From positions 1 through 31,798 of IMG/VR virus record IMGVR_UViG_3300032293_002078: a stretch of DNA of 31,798 bases, one strand, 5' to 3'. Numbering within the stretch: the stretch's first letter is position 1; every line of letters starts with the position of its first letter. The stretch is from a virus. Below the pieces are notes generated by a model. The model ran no database searches and had not been told where the DNA came from. It saw only the letters and a list, made by a program, of their open reading frames with translations. Made by a program: the position numbers and the translations under genes. This document shows, one piece after another, positions 1,011 to 28,752 of this stretch.

Positions 1011-3671
1011 ATGACAAAATTGTTATTTATTGCTCCTCATTTATCAACAGGTGGACTTCCTCAATATTTAACTAAAAAAATAGAATTACTTAAAGATATA
1101 TATGATATTTATCTTGTAGAATGGGTTGATTGTACTGGAGGGGTTTTAGTAGTTACTAGAAATAAAATAGTAAATTTAATTGATTCTGATAAATTTTTTA
1201 CATTAGGTAATAATAAACATGAATTAATTAACATTATACACCGCATTCAACCGGATATAATACATTTAGAGGAAATACCCGAATTCTTCATGGATGATGA
1301 AATTACCCACCAAATATACACCCAAAATAGAAATTATTCCATTGTAGAAACATCACATGATTCTTCATTTGATACAAATAATAAATTATTTTTCCCTGAT
1401 AAATTTATGTTTGTTTCGGATTGGCAAATTCAACAATATAAAGATTTAGATATTCCTAAAATATTAGTAGAATACCCAATTGAATATACTGAACGTCCAA
1501 ATCGAGAAGAATCATTAACTAAATTAGGATTAGACCCTAATAAAAAACATGTTTTGCATGTTGGTTTATATACTTCTCGTAAAAACCAAGCTGAATTTTT
1601 TGAATATGCTAAACAATTCCCAGATATTGAATTTCACAGTTTAGGAAATAGAGCAGAAAATTTTAAATGGTATTGGGAACCATTAACTAAAGATCAACCC
1701 TTAAATTTAACTTGGTGGAACGAACGCTCAGATGTAGATGCTTTTTATCAATCTATGGATTTATTTTTATTTACTTCTCGGGGACATGATAATGATAAAG
1801 AAACAATGCCTTTAGTTATTCGTGAGGCAATTTCATATCAAATCCCAACTTTAATTTATAACCTCCCAGTTTATTTAGATTATTTTGATAAATTTGAAAC
1901 TATTGATTATTTAAAATTTGATGATTTTAAAACTAATTGTGATAGAATTGCTGAAAAATTAGGTATTAAAGAATCAAATCTAAATGAAGAAATATTTATT
2001 TTATCTACATTCCCTATAAGTGATGCTATAATTGAAACTACATTAAAAACAATAGATTCAATACATGCTCGAGGAACAAAAGTATTAGTAACATCTCATA
2101 TTCCTGTTCCTTTTGAAATCGAATCTAAAGCAGATTATGTTGTTGTTGATAATAACAATATTTTAACAAAACATACTTACTATTGTAATTACTGGTCAGA
2201 CCATCCAGATCATAAAGTCCATATTAATTTAAGAGGAAACGATAATGATGTTTATCATGGACCTAGTGTTCATTCTAATTATGTAAACGGCGCGGCCTTA
2301 GCAAAAAGTTTAGGATATAAAAAATTATTCTTTATTAATTTTGATTACACAATACAATCCCAACATCATATTGATAAAATATCTAAAATATTAGATACTA
2401 AAAAAGCATACTTTGGTAAGTATAAAGCTTCTGAAGGTGATGCTTTGCATACTTATTTTTATGCTTCCACCTCAGATTTCTTTTTAGATCACGTTCGCCA
2501 AGTATTTAATGCTGAGGAATATGAATATTTACGTTTTCAATTAGGAAGTGAAAGTAATGGACTTGAAAATATGTGGTATCATATATTTAAAAGAAGTGCA
2601 GACCAAATTTATTTTGAAGATATTGAAATATTTAATCAAAAAAGTTTAGAAACCTTTAACCACCACGATTTTTCTCAAGTAGAATATTTTACAGTTTTAC
2701 CTACTAATATTCCAAATACGTTTGCTCCTTATATTAGAATTTCTAATAGTAAAGAATCAAGACTTATCCAAATTACAGTACATGATAAAGATAAAAATGA
2801 AGTATTTTTTGATGAATTAAATGTAGAAAGTAAAATAGATTATTATAAAGTTCTCCCATACGAAGAAGGAATGGAAGTAGAATTTAAAATTAGTAATTAT
2901 CATAAAATTCTTAAAATATCTACTATTCAAGTAAAAAATCTTGAATTTAATGGTAATTTAGAAATAAAAAACTTAAATACAAAGATTAAACTAATGCATT
3001 TAGTTACTGAACCTGATTCTAATCTAAAGGAAATTAGATCAGTAGAAAATATTAAAGATTTTTGCAATAAAACAGGTATCAAATACGAACAAAGAGTAAA
3101 TAAAATATGGACAGAATTACCTCCTAGTGATACTTGTGCTCGACCCCAAGATGTTCAAGATAAGCCTGGATATTATAAATTAGCACCGGGTCATTATGGT
3201 TGTTATTTAGCTCATACAAATGCTATTTTAGCAGATGACAATAAAGATTATGATTATATATTAATATTTGAAGGAGATGTAATTATAGATTCTGATTATC
3301 AAGAATTATATGATTCTTTAATTCGCTTTAGTAAAATATCTAAAGAACAAAACCAAGATATAATTGGATTTGGTAATCCATTTAATAATCGTAATTTAAA
3401 TGGACCTAAAATTGAAGACATTTATACAAATGTAACTCCCTTTATCCCTGCTCAGTCTTATTTAATTAATAATGAAAAAATAAATTATATTCAAGATAAA
3501 ATAAAAACAACTTTGTGGGATGCTTTTGATATGTGGGTATGCAATATTGCTCAATTAAAAGTAGGTACTGCTGAAAAAATATACACAAAACACCTCCCGG
3601 GGTTTAGTATTATTGAACAAGAATTTAAAGGAATTGATGAAAATAGTCCCGAAATATACGCTACCGAATGA
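1011..3671 (+). CDS. Three-domain glycosyltransferase (GT-B + GT-A-like + GT25)
   Basis: The 886-residue protein carries three probable sugar-transfer domains. Residues ~1-320 look like a GT4-type GT-B fold, with N-terminal LLFIAPHLSTGG, then HVGLYTSRKNQ and the late LVIREAISYQIPTLIY segment. Residues ~325-555 form a separate alpha/beta domain (ILSTFPISD..., FFINFDYTI) that resembles a GT-A enzyme, less surely. A beta-rich linker (~575-655) precedes a GT25 domain (~658-886) recognised by GCYLAHTNAI near 730 and the acidic FEGDVII near 753, equivalent to the EDD metal site of LPS glycosyltransferases. It would act in the host cytoplasm on nucleotide sugars. Its stop overlaps the next gene by ATGA, implying coupled translation. 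Acceptors could be phage fibre protein or host surface glycan; sugar specificity cannot be read from the sequence. Confidence 0.75.
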   Translation: MTKLLFIAPHLSTGGLPQYLTKKIELLKDIYDIYLVEWVDCTGGVLVVTRNKIVNLIDSDKFFTLGNNKHELINIIHRIQPDIIHLEEIPEFFMDDEITHQIYTQNRNYSIVETSHDSSFDTNNKLFFPDKFMFVSDWQIQQYKDLDIPKILVEYPIEYTERPNREESLTKLGLDPNKKHVLHVGLYTSRKNQAEFFEYAKQFPDIEFHSLGNRAENFKWYWEPLTKDQPLNLTWWNERSDVDAFYQSMDLFLFTSRGHDNDKETMPLVIREAISYQIPTLIYNLPVYLDYFDKFETIDYLKFDDFKTNCDRIAEKLGIKESNLNEEIFILSTFPISDAIIETTLKTIDSIHARGTKVLVTSHIPVPFEIESKADYVVVDNNNILTKHTYYCNYWSDHPDHKVHINLRGNDNDVYHGPSVHSNYVNGAALAKSLGYKKLFFINFDYTIQSQHHIDKISKILDTKKAYFGKYKASEGDALHTYFYASTSDFFLDHVRQVFNAEEYEYLRFQLGSESNGLENMWYHIFKRSADQIYFEDIEIFNQKSLETFNHHDFSQVEYFTVLPTNIPNTFAPYIRISNSKESRLIQITVHDKDKNEVFFDELNVESKIDYYKVLPYEEGMEVEFKISNYHKILKISTIQVKNLEFNGNLEIKNLNTKIKLMHLVTEPDSNLKEIRSVENIKDFCNKTGIKYEQRVNKIWTELPPSDTCARPQDVQDKPGYYKLAPGHYGCYLAHTNAILADDNKDYDYILIFEGDVIIDSDYQELYDSLIRFSKISKEQNQDIIGFGNPFNNRNLNGPKIEDIYTNVTPFIPAQSYLINNEKINYIQDKIKTTLWDAFDMWVCNIAQLKVGTAEKIYTKHLPGFSIIEQEFKGIDENSPEIYATE

Positions 3672-8253: not shown

Positions 8254-8742
8254 ATGGCAATATTAGATTCTAACGAAATATTTTTCACCGCTTTTGAACC
8301 AAAACAAGCGAATAGGTTTATCGTGTATATTGATGGTATTCCATCATATGAAATTAAGGGTGTAAGTGCAGTTACCCTTAATTCAGGAACAGTCACTTTA
8401 AATCATATTAACACTCAACGTTACCTTAAAGGTATGACAAAATGGGATCCAATTACATTTACTCTTTATGACCCAGTAACTCCTTCAGGAGCTCAAGCAA
8501 TAATGGAGTGGGTACGATTACACCATGAATCTGTAACAGGACGTGATGGTTATTCGGATATGTATAAAAAAGATTTAACAATAAATGTATTAGGTCCTGT
8601 AGGAGATATTGTTTCTGAATGGGTGTTAAAAGGATGTTTTATTACAAGTGCTGCCTTTGGTGAATACAATTGGGATACAGCGGATACAGCTATAAACCTT
8701 ACAATGACAGTTCAACCTGATTATTGTGTGTTAAATTTCTAA
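8254..8742 (+). CDS. Tail tube protein (gp19-like)
   Basis: The 162-residue product is almost the length of T4 gp19 (163) and lies directly after the sheath, as in T4. It begins FFTAFEPKQANRFIVYIDGIPSYEIKGV, the typical first strands of a T4-type tube protein, followed by TLNHINTQRYLKG, the long strand that forms the tube interior, KWDPITFTLYDPVTPSGAQAIMEWV, and ends with AINLTMTVQPDYCVLNF. Hexamers of this protein stack to form the DNA conduit inside the sheath. A strong terminator follows 27 bp after the stop, closing this transcript. Confidence 0.95.
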   Translation: MAILDSNEIFFTAFEPKQANRFIVYIDGIPSYEIKGVSAVTLNSGTVTLNHINTQRYLKGMTKWDPITFTLYDPVTPSGAQAIMEWVRLHHESVTGRDGYSDMYKKDLTINVLGPVGDIVSEWVLKGCFITSAAFGEYNWDTADTAINLTMTVQPDYCVLNF

Positions 8743-8846: not shown

Positions 8847-9593
8847 ATGGAAGAAAAAAAACACAAATTCCCTACGGAGCACGTAGAATTACCATCAAAA
8901 GGTTTACTTTACCCTGAAAAACATCCCTTATCAAAAGGTACTGTCGAAATAAAATATATGACAGCTAAAGAAGAAGATATTCTTACTAACATAAATTATA
9001 TTAAACAGGGAATAGTAATTGATAAATTATTACAATCCCTTGTAGTAACTAAATTCGATTGGGAAGATCTATTAATTGGAGATAAAAATGCTATTATGAT
9101 TGCGGCTCGTATTTTAGGTTATGGTAAAGATTATCCATTCACATATGAGGGCGAAGAAGTATTATTAGATCTTAATGAACTTCCTACTATTTATTTAGAT
9201 GAAACAAAAGTAACTAAAGGTGTTAATGAATTTGAATTTATAACTCCTACAGGAAAAAATAAACTTACGTTTAAATATTTAACATCAAGAGATGATAAAG
9301 CAATTGAAGCTGAAAGTAAAGGTCTTAAAAGAATTAATAAAAATTCATCTACTGATATTTCAACTAAATTAAAACACCAACTTCTTTCAGTTGATGGGGA
9401 GGATGATCCAAAAACTATTAGAGAATTTGTTGATAATTATTTTTTAGCACGTGATTCAACTGCTTTAAGATCCCACATAAAAGCAACCCAACCAGATATT
9501 AAAATGACATTTATTCACGAAAGTGCAAATGGTGAAGAGGAGGTTGCCGTACCTATGCAGGTACAGTTTTTTTGGCCTGACGCAAGAGTATAG
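8847..9593 (+). CDS. gp26-like baseplate/tail assembly protein
   Basis: This 248-residue protein resembles the T4 baseplate protein family that includes gp26. Its N-terminus reads VELPSKGLLYPEKHPLSKGTVEIKYM, then TAKEEDILTNINYIKQGIVIDKLLQSL and AAARILGYGKDYPF-type sequence, all characteristic of that family, and it ends with VQFFWPDARV. T4 gp26 has 208 residues. The gene sits just ahead of the tape measure, where siphoviruses and many myoviruses encode tail assembly chaperones G/GT. Its last 70 bases overlap a +1 frame that continues as a gp51-like sequence, and a seven-T run at 9567-9573 lies within the FF codons, so a fraction of ribosomes may shift to give a longer protein. Whether it is a virion component or a chaperone is not settled by the sequence. 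Confidence 0.8.
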   Translation: MEEKKHKFPTEHVELPSKGLLYPEKHPLSKGTVEIKYMTAKEEDILTNINYIKQGIVIDKLLQSLVVTKFDWEDLLIGDKNAIMIAARILGYGKDYPFTYEGEEVLLDLNELPTIYLDETKVTKGVNEFEFITPTGKNKLTFKYLTSRDDKAIEAESKGLKRINKNSSTDISTKLKHQLLSVDGEDDPKTIREFVDNYFLARDSTALRSHIKATQPDIKMTFIHESANGEEEVAVPMQVQFFWPDARV

Positions 9594-9810
9594 ATTTAAT
9601 TTATTTAAAACTATTCACGAAATTGTTTATTTTGGACGTGGAGGATATGATTACCTTACGGTATATAATATGCCTATTTGGTTAAGAAATATTACCTTTA
9701 AATTTATTCAAGATTCAATTAACCAAGAAAACAACAAAAATAACCAAAAACCCGGTAATACTACCAAAACAACTTTAGATTGGGTAAATCCTGATAGAAG
9801 TAAATTATAA
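9523..9810 (+). CDS. gp51-like assembly protein, probably a frameshift extension of the gp26-like gene
   Basis: The 95-codon frame begins at an internal ATG, but the first ~16 residues look like a shadow of the upstream gene, whereas from FFGLTQEYRFNLF onward the sequence is protein-like: TIHEIVYFGRGGYDYLTVYNMPIWLRNITFKFIQ, then a polar Asn/Lys linker and WVNPDRSKL. Position directly after gp26 matches T4 gene 51, a baseplate hub assembly catalyst. The join VQFF to GLTQEY at the T7 run makes a smooth fusion of about 320 residues, so I prefer translation by +1 (or -2) frameshift from 8847 over independent initiation. The stop is followed at once by a terminator. Independent initiation at 9523 or at 9670 cannot be excluded. 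Confidence 0.6.
   Translation: MQMVKRRLPYLCRYSFFGLTQEYRFNLFKTIHEIVYFGRGGYDYLTVYNMPIWLRNITFKFIQDSINQENNKNNQKPGNTTKTTLDWVNPDRSKL
9564..9576 (+). promoter_or_regulatory. Candidate programmed frameshift site (T7 run)
   Basis: Frame 0 reads CAG TTT TTT TGG. A peptidyl tRNA-Phe on the second TTT can slip +1 onto another TTT because of the seventh T, after which GGC CTG ACG continues the gp51-like frame. A -2 slip would reach the same frame. The zero frame ends 18 bases later at TAG. Confidence 0.5.
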
Positions 9811-9872: not shown

Positions 9873-12800
9873 ATGGCAAAGAAACAGGAAGAAATAAGTA
9901 AAGAAAATACGGAAGCTGCTAACAAAGCAATTGCAGATCAATTAAATCTTGTAAGTCAAATACAAGATAAAATGGCTTTTATCCTGAAAACATCTAAAGA
10001 AAAATATACTCAAGATAGATTAGCTTTAGATTTAACAAAACAAGCTACTAACTTAACAAAATCACTTTCATCAGAATATACTTCCCTTAAAGATGTTGAA
10101 AAAGACATTGCAAGAAATAAAAAACTTCAAAATGAAGTATCAAGGACTATGCTTAATCTTGAAAAAGAAATTGGGGCTGAAGGTAAAAAGAAAATAGAGT
10201 TTATTAAAAACCAAGAAAAAGGATTAGAAAAATCTAAAAAAATATTAGAGGAACTAAGAAAAAATGAAACTTTAGGTATTAAAGGTGCTAAAGAACAAGC
10301 AGATGCTTTAGGAAAACAAATACTTACACGGCAAAAATCTTTAAATACTCAAAAAGAAAATCTTCCAATTGAAGAAAAAGAATATGCTCTTCTTAAAGAA
10401 ACAAGTAAAATCTTAGAAGGAAATGTTGAGCATTTACAAGACCAAGGAAAACAACAAGAAAATCTAGTTAAATCTCAAAGTGTATTTACCTCAGCATTAA
10501 CAGGAGCTAGTAACGTACTTAATAAATTAGGTATGGGTGATTTAAGTAAAAAAATGGGATTAGATGCTGGAGCTAAAAAAGCAAAAGAAATGACCTATAT
10601 ATTAACTGAGGGAGGTAAAAAATCACTAGGTGTTTTTGGTAAAATGAAAGTAGCCGCAGCCTCTTTTGGAGCAACTTTAAAATCAGCTTTAGGACCTTTA
10701 GCTTTAATATCAATGTTAATTGGAGCTATTGTAAATGCTTATAATAAAGGAAAAGAAGCGGCAACAAGATTAAGTGATGAAAATGTAGAGTTATCAAGAA
10801 CAATGGGTGTAGCTCAAGGTACCGCTAATGGAATAGCTGGAGCAGTTAGAGGCATTGGAGCTTCTATGGGTATTACTGGAGGTCAAGCAACAGCATCTGC
10901 TGGAGCTATATACTCAGCACTAGATGGAGCTGAAAAAATATCTACAAGAACATTAGCAACATTTGTAAAACTAAACGTATTTGCAGGAATGTCAGCTGAT
11001 AGTATTGCTGATATCCAAAAATTCTCAAAACTATCTGGAAAAGATGCAGGAGTAGTAGCTGAAGAAATGGCTAAAACAGCACAACATTCAATTAAAGCTA
11101 ATAAAGTTAATATTAGTTTAAGAACTGTTATGATGGAAGTTGGTAAAACATCTTCAATTTTAAAAATTAATATGGGTGGATCTACCTCGGCAATAACTAA
11201 TGCTGTAATTCAATCTAAAAAATTAGGTTTAGAATTAAAACAAGTTGAAGATATAGCTAATAGTTTACTAAATATTGAAGATTCAATTGCTGCTGAAATG
11301 GAAGCAGAACTCCTTACAGGTAAAGATTTAAATCTTGAAAAAGCTAGAGAAGCAGCATTAAATAATGATAATGTAACTTTAATGGAAGAAATTTCAAAGA
11401 ACTTTGGTTCTATGGAAGAATTTGGAAAAATGAATAGAGTTCAACAAGAAGCATTTGCTAAATCAATTGGTATGTCTCGTGATGGATTAGCAGATATGTT
11501 AGTTAAAGGTAAAGAAAATGTAGCAGCAAATACGGCCCTAGTTGGTTCCCAAGGAAGTGGAACAGCAGCAATGGAATCTCAAGCAAAACTTAGTGAAACA
11601 TTATTAGCCCAAGAAGAAGCTAGAGCTAATCAATTTGCTGGAATTTTTGCATTACTTCAACCAATAGTAGAGTTATTTAAAGATATGGGACCTTTAGTAT
11701 TAAAACTAATTACCCCTATTGTTCAAGTACTTGCTCCTATTTTACAAAACATTATGGAAGACCTACTTCCCGTTATTGCTCAACTATTTGATTCAATTGC
11801 CCCTATATTACAAAAACTTGCCGAATTACTTGCTCCTATTATAGAAGTAGTAGGAAAAGTTCTTGTAACCGCGGTTGGTTTTTTAGCACAACTGTTTGAA
11901 AGAATTGTTCCTTTTATAGTAAATATACTAGATGCTTTTATGCCCATAGTAGATATTATAGTTAAAATAGTTGAGGATCTTATGCCTGTATTTTTATCTT
12001 TATTTGATTCTGTTATTCCTATTGTTGAAGAAATACTTGCAGCTTTACTACCCATAATTTCCGAGGTTTTAGCAATAATGGCCCCTATACTAAAAGAAAG
12101 TATGGTACTGTTTACGGACCTATTAAAACAATTATTACCTCCAATTAAAGAACTACTTGTATCTTTAGCACCTGTAATAGGAGATATATTAAAAGCACTA
12201 ATGCCTATTTTAAAACTGTTTATGGAGGTACAAGCAGCAATATTACCTTTAATTATAGATTTATTTAAGATGCTAGTTCCTGTAATTGTAGAAATTTTAG
12301 ATGCAGTAATGCCTATCATTACAGCTCTACTTGGTTTAATTGCACCTATTTTAAAACCAATTCTTGGAATATTTGTAGAATTAGCTAAAATGCTTTTACC
12401 TTTACTTGTTGATAATATAAAACTACTTTTACCTATTTTAAAACCAATTCTTACAATAATTGGGGGCATAGCTACTCTTATTACGGGTATTATAGAAGGA
12501 GATTTTTCTAAAGTAGCAGATGGCTTAAAAGGAATTGCAGAAGGATTAATTAATTTAGTTATAAAAGCTTTTGAATTTATATTAAATTTACCTATTAGAG
12601 CAATCAACGCTCTGTTAGATTATGTACCAAATTTTGGACCAAACACAATCCCCGCAGTAAAGTTTGGAACTGTAAAATTAGCAGAAGGAGGTATAGTAGA
12701 CAGTCCAACTAACGCACTTATTGGGGAAGCAGGACCTGAAGCCGTAGTACCTTTAAATAATGATAAATCTATGAATGTTTATTCTACTACTTTAGAAGCA

Positions 12801-12905
12801 AAATTAGATAAGCTTATAGATTTAGTATCAAAAGGAGGAGATGTTTTTCTTGATGGTAATAAAGTAGGAGTTACATTAGCTTTATCTAATTATAGACAAC
12901 AATAA
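9873..12905 (+). CDS. Tape measure protein
   Basis: The preferred start gives 1010 residues (MAKKQEEISKEN). Residues ~1-190 are charged coiled coil; ~200-300 hold an Ala/Gly-rich hydrophobic segment (AAASFGATLKSALGPLALISMLIGAIVNAY) that may insert into membranes during DNA entry; ~310-590 are a mixed helical domain. Residues ~597-860 are a hydrophobic helix series with prolines mostly 11 residues apart (see finding). The end, LAEGGIVDSPTNALIGEAGPEAVVPLNN, is the hallmark C-terminal motif of tape measure proteins. By the usual rule of about 0.15 nm per residue the tail would be near 150 nm. In the virion it lies in the tube lumen and sets tail length. T4 gp29 is 590 residues, so this is much longer. 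It follows its own terminator-promoter pair. Confidence 0.93.
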   Translation: MAKKQEEISKENTEAANKAIADQLNLVSQIQDKMAFILKTSKEKYTQDRLALDLTKQATNLTKSLSSEYTSLKDVEKDIARNKKLQNEVSRTMLNLEKEIGAEGKKKIEFIKNQEKGLEKSKKILEELRKNETLGIKGAKEQADALGKQILTRQKSLNTQKENLPIEEKEYALLKETSKILEGNVEHLQDQGKQQENLVKSQSVFTSALTGASNVLNKLGMGDLSKKMGLDAGAKKAKEMTYILTEGGKKSLGVFGKMKVAAASFGATLKSALGPLALISMLIGAIVNAYNKGKEAATRLSDENVELSRTMGVAQGTANGIAGAVRGIGASMGITGGQATASAGAIYSALDGAEKISTRTLATFVKLNVFAGMSADSIADIQKFSKLSGKDAGVVAEEMAKTAQHSIKANKVNISLRTVMMEVGKTSSILKINMGGSTSAITNAVIQSKKLGLELKQVEDIANSLLNIEDSIAAEMEAELLTGKDLNLEKAREAALNNDNVTLMEEISKNFGSMEEFGKMNRVQQEAFAKSIGMSRDGLADMLVKGKENVAANTALVGSQGSGTAAMESQAKLSETLLAQEEARANQFAGIFALLQPIVELFKDMGPLVLKLITPIVQVLAPILQNIMEDLLPVIAQLFDSIAPILQKLAELLAPIIEVVGKVLVTAVGFLAQLFERIVPFIVNILDAFMPIVDIIVKIVEDLMPVFLSLFDSVIPIVEEILAALLPIISEVLAIMAPILKESMVLFTDLLKQLLPPIKELLVSLAPVIGDILKALMPILKLFMEVQAAILPLIIDLFKMLVPVIVEILDAVMPIITALLGLIAPILKPILGIFVELAKMLLPLLVDNIKLLLPILKPILTIIGGIATLITGIIEGDFSKVADGLKGIAEGLINLVIKAFEFILNLPIRAINALLDYVPNFGPNTIPAVKFGTVKLAEGGIVDSPTNALIGEAGPEAVVPLNNDKSMNVYSTTLEAKLDKLIDLVSKGGDVFLDGNKVGVTLALSNYRQQ

Positions 12906-12943: not shown

Positions 12944-13210
12944 ATGCCACAACAACAAACATCTCTTTTAAACTTATTAAACACAGGTGCAACTGAGTTA
13001 GCACTTAATGCTCCAACTACAACTCCTAATCTACAATTTTCAAAATTAAAAGCAACCTTTGCAGCTACATCAGACTTAGATTTAAATGGAGTTACACCCC
13101 CAAGTCTAAATCAACAAATCTCTAATTTAGAAGCAACTTTTGCAGCTACATCAGACTTAGATTTAAATGGAGTTACCCCACCAAAATATATTGATAACCA
13201 ACCACAGTAA
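12944..13210 (+). CDS. Small protein with a duplicated 27-residue unit
   Basis: An 88-residue protein of unknown function made largely of two units: SKLKATFAATSDLDLNGVTPP and SNLEATFAATSDLDLNGVTPP, with period 27 residues. The 17 residues ATFAATSDLDLNGVTPP are identical. It starts MPQQQTSLLNLLNTGATELALN. Location between the tape measure and baseplate genes, behind a late promoter element, suggests a virion or tail assembly protein, perhaps binding a repeated partner. No signal peptide or membrane segment is seen. It could also be a chaperone or a decorative peptide; no family is recognised. Confidence 0.7.
   Translation: MPQQQTSLLNLLNTGATELALNAPTTTPNLQFSKLKATFAATSDLDLNGVTPPSLNQQISNLEATFAATSDLDLNGVTPPKYIDNQPQ
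13052..13183 (+). repeat. 51-bp direct repeat, two copies, period 81 bp
   Basis: Copies at 13052-13102 and 13133-13183 differ only at a few synonymous third positions (for example ACC/ACT and ACACCC/ACCCCA). High nucleotide identity with only silent changes points to recent duplication or gene conversion under protein constraint. Confidence 0.85.
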
Positions 13211-18393: not shown

Positions 18394-19674
18394 ATGTTTT
18401 GGTTAATAGAAACACAAGAACAAATAAATTATCTTCAACAAAGCAACTTTAAAGAAGTTTTTATAGAGATAATCCCCCACCATGATAAAGTACACCCTGC
18501 TTTAAATAATATTTCTTTAGTATATTTTAGACCAGTTACCGCCTCTAAAGGATTTATGATATGTCTTGATCATAGTGAAACCTTAAGCATCAACAATCCA
18601 GTAGTAAATGAGTTATTAACGTCAGTTGAGTGTCTATGGGTGCGAGATAAGAAAAATGCATTATACTACTTTCAAATTAAGAGCTTGCGCGATATAAACA
18701 TACTCACTCCTCCGTATATACAAGAACAAACCCAAGCACACACATATTTTTATAACAAGTATCCGGAAAATCTAAAAATAAATAAAATTATTCCGGTAGT
18801 TAAACACTATGAGTATTGTGAAAATATTTATAATAAAACAAAACAACATTTTACACAAGATGTACCTCAACATTTTGACTTTTATAACAATAAATCAACG
18901 ATTGCATTTTTTGGAATCGAAAAAAACGGAATAAACATAAATGAAACAGTTTTTAATCAACATTTTCCCCAAATTAACCCTTTGTACTCCATTAGGGATA
19001 ACAAAATATATACCAACTATAACTTATTTACAACTACACGTAGACCAAGTAACACTTTTAATGGTCTTAATTTTGCGGCATTAAATAAAGAAAGTGGAGC
19101 TAGAAAAAGTTTTATACCAACCGGTAAATTTATTGAGTACGATATTAGTGCTTATCATCCTAACCTTGCTGCTCGTTTAGTTTCTTTTGATTTTGAGGGA
19201 CAAGACGTTCATCAAATATTTGCGGATATGTATGGTACAAGTTATAAAGAAGCTAAAGAACTTACATTCAAACAACTATATGGAGGAGTATTTAAAGAAT
19301 ATGAACACCTAGAATTTTTCCAAAAAATAAAGAAATTTATTGATAACAACTGGAATGAATTTAATAATATAGGAGAAATTAAAGTACCAATTTCAGGCTA
19401 TAGCTTTAAAAAAAGCGAGTTAGAAAACATGAATCCACAAAAGTTGTTTAATTATATATTACAAAATTTGGAAACATCAATGAATGTTTGTATATTAACG
19501 GCGTTAAATAAATTACTAAAAGGGAAAAACACTAAATTAGTATTATATACTTATGACAGTTTTTTACTAGATTATGACGAAAGTGAAAATTTATTAAAGG
19601 ACATAGAAGATATTTTTAAAAGTAAAAAATTACAAATAAAGATTAAACATGGAACAAGCTACGATTTTGAATAA
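18394..19674 (+). CDS. Compact family-A DNA polymerase, exonuclease domain degenerate
   Basis: A 426-residue polymerase of the Pol I family. Residues ~1-160 occupy the place of the 3'-5' exonuclease but lack the expected DxE (FIEIIP at 23-28 instead) and the later catalytic Asp, so proofreading is probably absent. FFGIEKNGININ (~172-183) matches the start of the thumb. Then RRPSN (216-220) and GLNFAAL match the template-binding segment; motif A is EYDISAYHPNL with Asp250; motif B is Lys288-x3-Phe292-x3-Tyr296-Gly297; motif C is TYDSF with Asp388, replacing the usual HDE with YDS. It would copy phage DNA with the gp32, UvsX, helicase and 5' nuclease encoded nearby. T4 itself uses a family-B enzyme, so this is a replacement. 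It overlaps the next gene by 26 bp and has its own host-type promoter. Confidence 0.85.
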   Translation: MFWLIETQEQINYLQQSNFKEVFIEIIPHHDKVHPALNNISLVYFRPVTASKGFMICLDHSETLSINNPVVNELLTSVECLWVRDKKNALYYFQIKSLRDINILTPPYIQEQTQAHTYFYNKYPENLKINKIIPVVKHYEYCENIYNKTKQHFTQDVPQHFDFYNNKSTIAFFGIEKNGININETVFNQHFPQINPLYSIRDNKIYTNYNLFTTTRRPSNTFNGLNFAALNKESGARKSFIPTGKFIEYDISAYHPNLAARLVSFDFEGQDVHQIFADMYGTSYKEAKELTFKQLYGGVFKEYEHLEFFQKIKKFIDNNWNEFNNIGEIKVPISGYSFKKSELENMNPQKLFNYILQNLETSMNVCILTALNKLLKGKNTKLVLYTYDSFLLDYDESENLLKDIEDIFKSKKLQIKIKHGTSYDFE

Positions 19675-27507: not shown

Positions 27508-28752
27508 ATGAAAAAATATTTTTTACCATTTATAATAGCTTTATCTGCATTATCTGTTAGTTTGTCTGCTGCTTTTTATTCAGTAACTGGTCTTAGTATG
27601 TTATTTGCTGGAGCTAGTTTTGCAGTTTTAATTATGGCTTCTTCTTTAGAAGTTGCTAAATTAGTTATTGCTTCCTTATTATACCAATATTGGAATACAT
27701 TAAATAAAATTTTAAGAACTTACCTTGCGGTAGCTACTTGTATATTAATACTAATTACATCTGCAGGAATTTATGGTTTTTTATCGGCAGCATATCAAAC
27801 TACAGCTACAAAATCTGAAATTATTGATAAACAAATTGCTGCCTTAGAAACTAAAAAACAACTTTACACAGATTCTAGAAATAATATATTAAAAGAAAAA
27901 CAATCCCTCTCAGATTTACGAGGTACATTATCTAAAGGCTCAACTACTCAATATACGGATAAAAATGGTAATTTAGTAGTTAGAACAAACAATGCTGCAA
28001 TTCGTAACATTGAATCAACATCTAAATCAGATGAAAAATTATCTGAAAAAGTAGATGTAGTAAATGATTCTATTTTTAGTTTAGAAAATCAAATTTTAGA
28101 AATTAAAACTAATGGTGAAACTACAAGTGAATTAGGTCCTCTTAAATATATTTCAAATTTAACAGGCCAACCGATGGATAAAATTATTAATTGGTTTTTG
28201 CTTGTTATTATTTTTGTGTTTGACCCATTAGCAATATCTTTAGTAATTGCTGCTAATTTTGCTTTTGCCCAAATTCGTAAAGACCCTATACATGATTTGA
28301 CTGAGGAAGATAAAGAATGGTTAGATGCTCCCTTATTTGAAGAAGAATTTAAAGAAGAATCTAAACAAGATGGAGTGCCAGTAATGATAGATCCTAAAAC
28401 AGGTAAATTCTTTTATGAAGAACCTGATCCTAAAAACAAAAATTTAGATTTAGATGGTGATGGTGTTGTTGAAGAAGAGGAAATTAAAGAAGTATTTAAT
28501 CAAGTTGATACTAATGATGATGGTGTTATTGATGAAAATGAAGCTAAACAATCTAATCTAGATAAAAAAACAACAAATAAACTTAATCAACTTCATAAAT
28601 CTCTTTCAGCCCTTGAAGAAATTAATAATGAAAATAATTATGATTTTCAATGGAAAAAAGATATAGTAAAAGAAGAAATTGATAATATTAAAAAAATTAT
28701 TATGAATCAATTCAATGAGGAAAAAGATGATAATACAATAACTTATTTTTAA
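27508..28752 (+). CDS. Membrane protein with coiled coil and two EF-hand-like loops
   Basis: A 414-residue protein of unknown function. Hydrophobic segments at ~5-27, ~30-60 and ~70-95 are followed by a polar, coiled-coil region (~100-220; KSEIIDKQIAALETKKQLY) and a further strong membrane segment at ~227-255 (WFLLVIIFVFDPLAISLVIA). The acidic C-terminal part contains two calcium-loop motifs: Asp314-Leu-Asp316-Gly-Asp318-Gly with Glu325, and Asp334-Thr-Asn336-Asp-Asp338-Gly with Glu345, only 20 residues apart, tighter than a normal EF-hand pair. The last ~60 residues are helical and charged. It follows nrdA by 21 bp. It may alter the host membrane, for example in superinfection exclusion or lysis control, but that is conjecture. 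Confidence 0.75.
   Translation: MKKYFLPFIIALSALSVSLSAAFYSVTGLSMLFAGASFAVLIMASSLEVAKLVIASLLYQYWNTLNKILRTYLAVATCILILITSAGIYGFLSAAYQTTATKSEIIDKQIAALETKKQLYTDSRNNILKEKQSLSDLRGTLSKGSTTQYTDKNGNLVVRTNNAAIRNIESTSKSDEKLSEKVDVVNDSIFSLENQILEIKTNGETTSELGPLKYISNLTGQPMDKIINWFLLVIIFVFDPLAISLVIAANFAFAQIRKDPIHDLTEEDKEWLDAPLFEEEFKEESKQDGVPVMIDPKTGKFFYEEPDPKNKNLDLDGDGVVEEEEIKEVFNQVDTNDDGVIDENEAKQSNLDKKTTNKLNQLHKSLSALEEINNENNYDFQWKKDIVKEEIDNIKKIIMNQFNEEKDDNTITYF

What the first reader, a model, noticed from the sequence alone, without database searches (positions are those of the whole stretch)
9523..9810. Likely programmed frameshift joining gp26-like and gp51-like sequences
The gp26-like frame ends FFWPDARV while the +1 frame, entered at a seven-T run, continues GLTQEYRFNLF... 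as a gp51-like tail. The overlap start at 9523 gives a poor N-terminus. The place, right before the tape measure, is where lambda-type tail chaperones G/GT use frameshifting. This would extend that logic to T4-like genes 26 and 51, which are separate in T4.
Basis: partly seen in the sequence, partly recalled or inferred. Interest (0 to 1): 0.7.

Follow-up and report, generated by a model that had tools for sequence, protein, structure and literature searches.

The report
Ribosome frameshift making phage tail chaperone
Two overlapping reading frames in this T4-related virus are almost certainly joined when some ribosomes skip one base at a run of seven T's, giving a short and a long form of a tail-building helper protein; the trick is known from other phages, but here it runs in the unusual forward (+1) direction at a site kept almost unchanged in hundreds of environmental viruses.

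Summary
The gp26-like ORF (8847-9593) runs into a T7 tract (9567-9573). The +1 frame continues from there as a conserved gp51-type C-terminal domain (9574-9810). In 199 non-redundant relatives the site is nearly invariant (core YTT TNN CCT, usually TTTTTTTGGCCTGAC), although synonymous sites just upstream are free. In a blind 15-mer scan of viral contigs, 118 of 119 copies sat in frame at the end of a gp26 homologue, all 118 with the +1 frame open. Variants TTTCTTT and TTCTTTT exclude transcriptional slippage and sequencing error as general causes; TTCTTTT also argues against a -2 shift. A third of relatives have no start codon for a separate second gene; the GTG at 9523 is chance. Best explanation: +1 ribosomal frameshifting makes short (TAC-N) and long (TAC-NC) tail assembly chaperones. 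T4 encodes gp26 and gp51 separately, gp51 itself being gp26-like plus this domain. Other T4-like phages show the junction in the -1 frame, most at T TTT TTY. Two relatives inside the +1 clade lost the site and gained an ATG-started gp51. Tail-chaperone frameshifting is known; the novelty is the direction switch and conserved cassette in T4-like phages.

The parts
8847..9593 (+). Frame-0 ORF, gp26-like short tail assembly chaperone (TAC-N), 248 aa
   Evidence: phrog_150 baseplate hub E=2.7e-11; PF12322 in 33/58 relatives, best 1.5e-22; AlphaFold model pLDDT 91.5, Foldseek hits to gp26-type baseplate hub proteins
9567..9581 (+). Slippery cassette TTTTTTTGGCCTGAC; in frame 0 TTT TTT TGG CCT GAC
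   Evidence: Near-invariant in 199 relatives; blind scan 118/119 in this context
9570..9573 (+). Proposed slip: P-site TTT (9570-9572) re-pairs on TTT (9571-9573) with TGG in the A site; next codon GGC (9574)
   Evidence: Variant codons TTT CTT TGG, TTC TTT TGG, CTT TTT TGG leave only YTT-T constant; inference from re-pairing rules
9574..9810 (+). +1-frame ORF, C-terminal gp51-type domain of the long chaperone (TAC-NC); consensus GLTPEYR..LF..IH.IV..G.GGY...TVYNMPIWLR
   Evidence: 58-member alignment A1; dN/dS median 0.58; weak phrog_634 match in relatives; fused product matches phrog_150 end to end
9591..9593 (+). Frame-0 stop codon TAG ending the short form, 24 nt after the first base of the cassette
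9523..9525 (+). GTG taken by the ORF caller as start of the second ORF: not a real start
   Evidence: Homology in this frame begins at the T run; 67/194 relatives have no ATG/GTG/TTG before the site in this frame
8254..8742 (+). Tail tube protein (gp19-like), upstream neighbour
   Evidence: PF06841 E=2.5e-7; phrog_4542 E=3.9e-29
9873..12905 (+). Tape measure protein, downstream neighbour (ATG at 9873; TTG 9834 is the ORF caller's start)
   Evidence: phrog_6090 and phrog_305, tail length tape measure, E about 1e-10

Best explanation
The two frames are one recoded gene. Most ribosomes read 8847-9593 and make a 248-aa gp26-like protein, the short tail assembly chaperone (TAC-N). A minority pause with peptidyl-tRNA-Phe on UUU (9570-9572) and UGG in the A site. 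The tRNA slips one base forward onto the overlapping UUU (9571-9573), and translation goes on in the +1 frame through 9810. This gives a 320-aa long chaperone (TAC-NC), equivalent in architecture to T4 gp51. By analogy with lambda gpG/gpGT the short form should coat the tape measure protein and the C-domain of the rarer long form should recruit tail tube subunits. Shown by sequence: the joined frames, the fixed +1 phase, selection on the site itself, absence of a usable start in many relatives, family assignment. Inferred: the exact slip codon, the ratio of products, and the chaperone function.
For: Phase always +1: 148/148 relatives with a complete ORF2 are open for at least 55 codons in +1, versus 0/148 in frame 0 and 1/148 in -1. 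Site: 199 non-redundant loci, TTT TTT TGG CCT x157, TTT CTT TGG CCT x16, TTC TTT TGG CCT x12, few others. Information at frame-0 third positions is mostly 0.02-0.18 bits upstream but 1.6-1.9 bits in the cassette. The Phe column at the slip is TTT 136/136, while three other conserved Phe columns are 67/136, 113/142 and 127/144 TTT. Conservation switches to the +1 periodicity after the site: mean frame-0 third-position information 0.25 upstream, 0.99 downstream. 67/194 loci have no ATG/GTG/TTG upstream of the site in the +1 frame, and in most of them the first one is about 100 nt inside the conserved domain. Blind 15-mer scan of IMG/VR: 118/119 copies at the end of a gp26 homologue (HMM E<1e-5), all 118 with +1 open; 117 hit the ORF2 HMM at E<1e-3. 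Isolated Flavobacterium phage immuto and Microcystis phage Mel-JY01 carry it too. T4 gp51 = phrog_150 + phrog_634, and the fused window product aligns to phrog_150 from 8 to 277 of 282, versus 8 to 150 for ORF1 alone. Loss of the site goes with gain of an ATG-started gp51 in L178/L182, nested in the +1 clade.
Against: No protein or ribosome-profiling data. No conserved downstream RNA structure and no 5' Shine-Dalgarno-like stimulator was found, so what raises shift efficiency is unexplained. The phrog_634 match is weak for the window's own ORF2 (E=0.19; 1 of 58 relatives at 0.001). Direct hhalign of the alignments with single T4 sequences found nothing. The PDB tail chaperone 2ob9 appears only as a non-significant structural match (E 4.4).
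Confidence: 0.9

Rival explanations
1. -2 ribosomal frameshifting (as recalled for Mu-like phages): the same frame is reached by slipping two bases back, adding one extra Phe at the junction.
For: Gives the same downstream frame; with T7 or T3CT3 the P-site tRNA could re-pair two bases back (sequence).
Against: 12 non-redundant loci have TTC TTT TGG, where a -2 move would put the Phe anticodon on UCU (mismatch at the middle base) while +1 re-pairs perfectly. GXN1 (TTC TTT CGT) and LR756508 (TTT CTA) also fit +1 better than -2.
Confidence: 0.05
2. Two separate genes: the second protein starts on its own codon, for example by translational coupling.
For: A GTG lies at 9523 in frame; two relatives (L178, L182) do have an ATG-started gp51.
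Against: 67/194 relatives have no ATG/GTG/TTG before the site in that frame, several with a stop one or two codons before the T run, and the first start then usually lies about 100 nt inside the conserved block. The slip motif would have no reason to be invariant. The two separate-gene relatives are precisely those that lost the motif.
Confidence: 0.03
3. Transcriptional slippage on the T7 homopolymer, giving mRNAs with U6 or U9.
For: Homopolymer of 7 in the window and most relatives.
Against: 16 loci have TTT CTT TGG and 12 have TTC TTT TGG, where no run exceeds three or four T's; the rest of the cassette is conserved equally there.
Confidence: 0.01
4. Sequencing or assembly error in a homopolymer: the gene is really one open frame.
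For: Homopolymers are error-prone; the contig is a metagenome assembly.
Against: The same +1 relation in about 190 non-redundant contigs from many samples and in isolate genomes, including sites without a long homopolymer; the blind motif scan gives 118/119.
Confidence: 0.01

Closest known systems
Phage lambda gpG/gpGT and the TAC frameshifts of other long-tailed phages (Xu, Hendrix & Duda 2004, as reviewed in PMC5009743)
   Different: Shift is +1 rather than -1; site is YTT TNN CCT instead of a -1 heptamer; proteins belong to the T4 gp26/gp51 families
T4 gp26 and gp51 (PF12322 / phrog_150, phrog_634); T4-like TACs of Vladimirov, Gautam & Davidson 2022
   Same: Same protein families; T4 gp51 is a gp26-like part plus the C-domain that the frameshift adds here
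   Different: T4 carries two separate genes on opposite strands; here one recoded gene makes both
gp26/gp51 of Kyanoviridae and some other T4-like phages (P-SSM2, Sf-CH8, HTVC008M, AS-zj, S13, pf16, Atu_ph04)
   Same: C-domain continues in another frame from the same FF place at the end of gp26
   Different: There the continuation is in the -1 frame, in most at a canonical T TTT TTC/T heptamer
+1 sites of bacterial RF2 (CUU UGA C), influenza PA-X (UUU CGU), and the archaeal myovirus HSTV-2 TAC ('very likely +1', PMC5009743)
   Same: P-site YUU tRNA slipping one base forward onto an overlapping UUN (RF2, PA-X: own knowledge); HSTV-2 is a +1 TAC precedent
   Different: No stop codon in the A site and no conserved 5' Shine-Dalgarno element as in RF2; no homology of genes shown

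Membership tests
G/GT-type tail assembly chaperone recoding | Gene pair between tail tube/sheath and tape measure | tested here: met
   gp19-like tube 8254-8742 before, tape measure after
[quoted passage not shown]
lambda sub-type of TAC recoding | -1 shift at a heptamer X XXY YYZ | tested here: not met
   C-domain lies in +1; -1 frame closed in 147/148
G/GT-type tail assembly chaperone recoding | TAC fold of the short protein (HK97 gp13-like) | tested here: inconclusive
   2ob9 ranks 13th, E 4.4, TMt 0.40
G/GT-type tail assembly chaperone recoding | Both products made in a fixed ratio and needed for tail length | not testable with these tools
   Needs protein experiments
T4 gp26 family (PF12322, phrog_150) | Match to family profile | tested here: met
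   phrog_150 E=2.7e-11; PF12322 just under cut-off for the window (22.8 vs 24.5 bits), 33/58 relatives match at E<0.01, best 1.5e-22
T4 gp51 family (gp26-like part + C-domain) | End-to-end match of the fused product | tested here: met
   P0003 4-288 to phrog_150 8-277/282, E=6.4e-12; T4 gp51 3-248 to 13-280
T4 gp51 family (gp26-like part + C-domain) | phrog_634 match of the C-domain | tested here: inconclusive
   E=0.19 for window, 0.001 for one relative
RF2-type +1 cassette | YUU in the P site followed by U | tested here: met
   194 of 199 loci have YTT followed by T with the +1 frame continuing
RF2-type +1 cassette | In-frame stop in the A site and 5' Shine-Dalgarno stimulator | tested here: not met
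   A-site codon TGG/TAC/TTC; upstream third positions unconserved
Mu-type -2 shift | P-site re-pairing two bases back possible in all members | tested here: not met
   TTC TTT TGG loci

The most novel reading that the evidence does not exclude
A whole branch of T4-like phages (Immutovirus-like, Mel-JY01-like and large uncultured groups) makes its gp26/gp51 tail chaperones by +1 frameshifting at one short, nearly frozen cassette (YUU UNN CCU) that works without a stop codon, Shine-Dalgarno element or RNA structure, in hosts as different as Bacteroidota and cyanobacteria. The same junction is a -1 site in Kyanoviridae and other T4-like phages and was replaced by separate genes at least twice (T4 itself; L178/L182), so recoding direction has switched at a fixed place in one gene family.
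Probability: 0.65. Interest if true: 0.65.

Novelty: new variant of a known kind. Interest (0 to 1): 0.55.

Why it matters
A 2016 review (PMC5009743) states that G-T type frameshifting is widely conserved in long-tailed phages 'except T4'. These data show recoding of the T4 gp26/gp51 pair itself in T4's relatives, and two routes (+1 and -1) to the same product, with separate genes as a derived state in at least one case. The cassette is short, sharply defined and abundant, so one reporter test would show how a +1 shift can be driven without the usual stimulators. It also corrects annotation: immuto's record misses the domain, and cyanophage gp51 genes are missing or start late.

Tried and rejected
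GTG at 9523 as a start (not conserved). Downstream stem-loop: RNAalifold on 58 representatives gave no structure, mean z of the 60 nt after the site -0.4. A 5' Shine-Dalgarno-like stimulator: upstream third positions carry almost no information. Direct hhalign of alignments A1/A2 against single T4 sequences: nothing; the PHROG profiles served instead. PDB structure search of the gp26 model: nothing significant. The tblastn step returned no upstream hits (the command used an option tblastn does not have); it was replaced by the HMM test. The key prior paper (Vladimirov et al. 2022) is not held, so what it says about frameshifting in individual T4-like phages is known only through citations.

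Full report
1. What is there. ORF 8847-9593 encodes 248 aa ending VQFFWPDARV*. In the +1 frame the sequence is open up to the stop at 9808-9810. Through the T run 9567-9573 it reads FFGLTQEYRFNLFKTIHEIVYFGRGGYDYLTVYNMPIWLRN.... The neighbours are a gp19-like tail tube protein (8254-8742) and a tape measure protein (from ATG 9873), so the pair sits exactly where tail assembly chaperones sit.

2. Protein families. The first frame matches phrog_150 (baseplate hub, E=2.7e-11) and, just under cut-off, PF12322 T4_baseplate; 33 of 58 diverse relatives match PF12322 at E<0.01, the best at 1.5e-22. In T4 itself phrog_150 and PF12322 match both gp26 and gp51, and phrog_634 matches gp51 147-246: gp51 is a gp26-like part plus a C-domain. 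The window's fused product (320 aa) matches phrog_150 from 8 to 277 of 282, whereas ORF1 alone stops at 150. The frameshift product is therefore laid out like T4 gp51. The ORF2 match to phrog_634 on its own is weak. An AlphaFold model of the short form (pLDDT 91.5) finds T4-type baseplate hub proteins in the viral library (52 matches at E<=0.001) and nothing significant in the PDB; the HK97 tail assembly chaperone 2ob9 appears at E 4.4.

3. Conservation of the arrangement. Scans with each half separately gave about 160 loci in IMG/VR, all with gp51 in the +1 phase to gp26 and homology of the second frame starting at the T run. Adding relatives of Mel-JY01, LR756508 and GXN1 gave 199 non-redundant loci. 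Frame-0 codon quartets: TTT TTT TGG CCT 157, TTT CTT TGG CCT 16, TTC TTT TGG CCT 12, TTT TTT TAC CCT 3, CTT TTT TGG CCT 3, TTT TTT TTC CCT 2, TTT CTT TAC CCT 1, and five odd ones. Only YTT-T and CCT are constant. CCT can be explained by double coding (Pro in frame 0, Leu in +1), but the T's at third positions of the two Phe/Leu codons cannot. Upstream third positions carry mostly 0.02-0.18 bits; those in the cassette 1.6-1.9. The Phe column at the slip is TTT in 136/136, other conserved Phe columns 49-88% TTT. After the site the conservation pattern changes to that of the +1 frame (mean frame-0 third-position information 0.25 upstream, 0.99 downstream), and the frame-0 stop lies within that stretch, so +1 reading starts before that stop.

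4. Blind test. Of 119 copies examined, 118 lie in frame at the end of a gp26 homologue (HMM E<1e-5), all 118 with the +1 frame open for at least 45 codons or to the contig end; 117 continue as an ORF2-type domain at E<1e-3. None is open that far in -1 or frame 0. The remaining copy, L376, looks like chance. Several of the C-domains are highly diverged, so the DNA cassette is kept better than the protein it leads into.

5. No separate start. In 67 of 194 loci the +1 frame has no ATG, GTG or TTG between its last stop and the site, in several the stop is directly upstream, and in most of them the next start lies about 100 nt inside the conserved block.

6. Direction and type of shift. TTC TTT TGG (12 loci) allows perfect P-site re-pairing at +1 but not at -2, nor tandem slippage. 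TTT CTT TGG and TTC TTT TGG remove the long homopolymer, which excludes transcriptional slippage there and homopolymer error as a general cause. The simplest common step is P-site Phe or Leu tRNA on YUU slipping to the overlapping UUU, as in RF2 (CUU) and PA-X (UUU); that comparison of mechanism is inference from own knowledge. No downstream structure or Shine-Dalgarno-like stimulator was found.

7. Evolution. In P-SSM2 and ten further phages of Kyanoviridae, Straboviridae and other groups the C-domain lies in the -1 frame from the same FF place, in most at T TTT TTC/T, and the annotated gp51 is often missing or starts late (Vibrio D503 has CTT TTC, a weaker site). T4 has separate genes on opposite strands. 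L178 and L182 have lost the cassette (TTC TTG TAT CCT; TTC CTT TGG CCA), the +1 frame is closed, and a gp51 ORF with its own ATG starts 2 and 5 nt after the stop in the remaining frame. In a 75-row tree these two form one clade nested in the +1 clade next to Flavobacterium phage immuto, and the main +1 clade is separated from the -1 clade by a well supported branch (long branches, so deep placements are unsure). L187, a distant relative of GXN1, looks like a -1 case (T TTT TTC).

8. Known or new. Tail chaperone frameshifting is established; a 2016 review says it is widely conserved 'except T4' and names one likely +1 case, HSTV-2 (PMC5009743). Vladimirov et al. 2022 identified the chaperones of T4-like phages; per PRFect (PMC10885494) some T4-like phages carry a short and a fused long gene, and per PMC12846349 poly-T -1 sites are known in T4-like TAC-N genes. 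I found no report of +1 recoding of gp26/gp51 in the held literature, but the key paper was not readable. Hence: new variant of a known kind.

9. Hosts. Isolates infect Flavobacterium and Microcystis; most bacterial genome bins with relatives are Flavobacteriales or other Bacteroidota, and the eight long enough to judge all carry the +1 arrangement. The bins probably hold phage contigs; this is a hint on hosts, not proof.

Noticed in passing
L280 (P-SSM2) about 980-1020; L281-L289: Cyanophage and several other T4-like gp26 genes end in T TTT TTC/T with the gp51 C-domain open in the -1 frame from that point, often with no start codon; the annotated gp51 is late-starting or absent.
   Followed up: partly
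L178 3160-3530, L182 3160-3500: Two contigs inside the +1 clade have lost the slip site and carry an ATG-started separate gp51 with a new N-terminal stretch (MENIDNLLREIQ / MNIDRFLQELQ).
   Followed up: yes
L162 (GXN1) 3200-3230: GXN1 has TTC TTT CGT CCC at this place with the +1 frame open, the same UUU CGU core as the influenza PA-X +1 site.
   Followed up: partly
L187 3140-3170: A distant relative has GAT TTT TTC and the C-domain in the -1 frame.
   Followed up: partly
NC_055915.1 150538-150761 (L160): The immuto record leaves the gp51-type domain unannotated and calls a short hypothetical protein there instead.
   Followed up: yes
window 12944-13210: Small ORF with a nearly perfect internal repeat (LKATFAATSDLDLNGVTPP / LEATFAATSDLDLNGVTPP), no PHROG match.
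   Followed up: no
window 18394-19674: 426-aa ORF with no Pfam or PHROG match, with a GKFIEYDISAYHPN...YTYDSFLLDYDE pattern reminiscent of a DNA polymerase active site.
   Followed up: no
window 27508-28752: Membrane-protein-like ORF with an EF-hand-like motif (DLDGDGVVEEEE...), EF-hand matches just below cut-off.
   Followed up: no
window 9566 and the same place in relatives: The base just before the T run is C or G in 182 of 199 loci although it is a third codon position; possibly marks the edge of the cassette.
   Followed up: no
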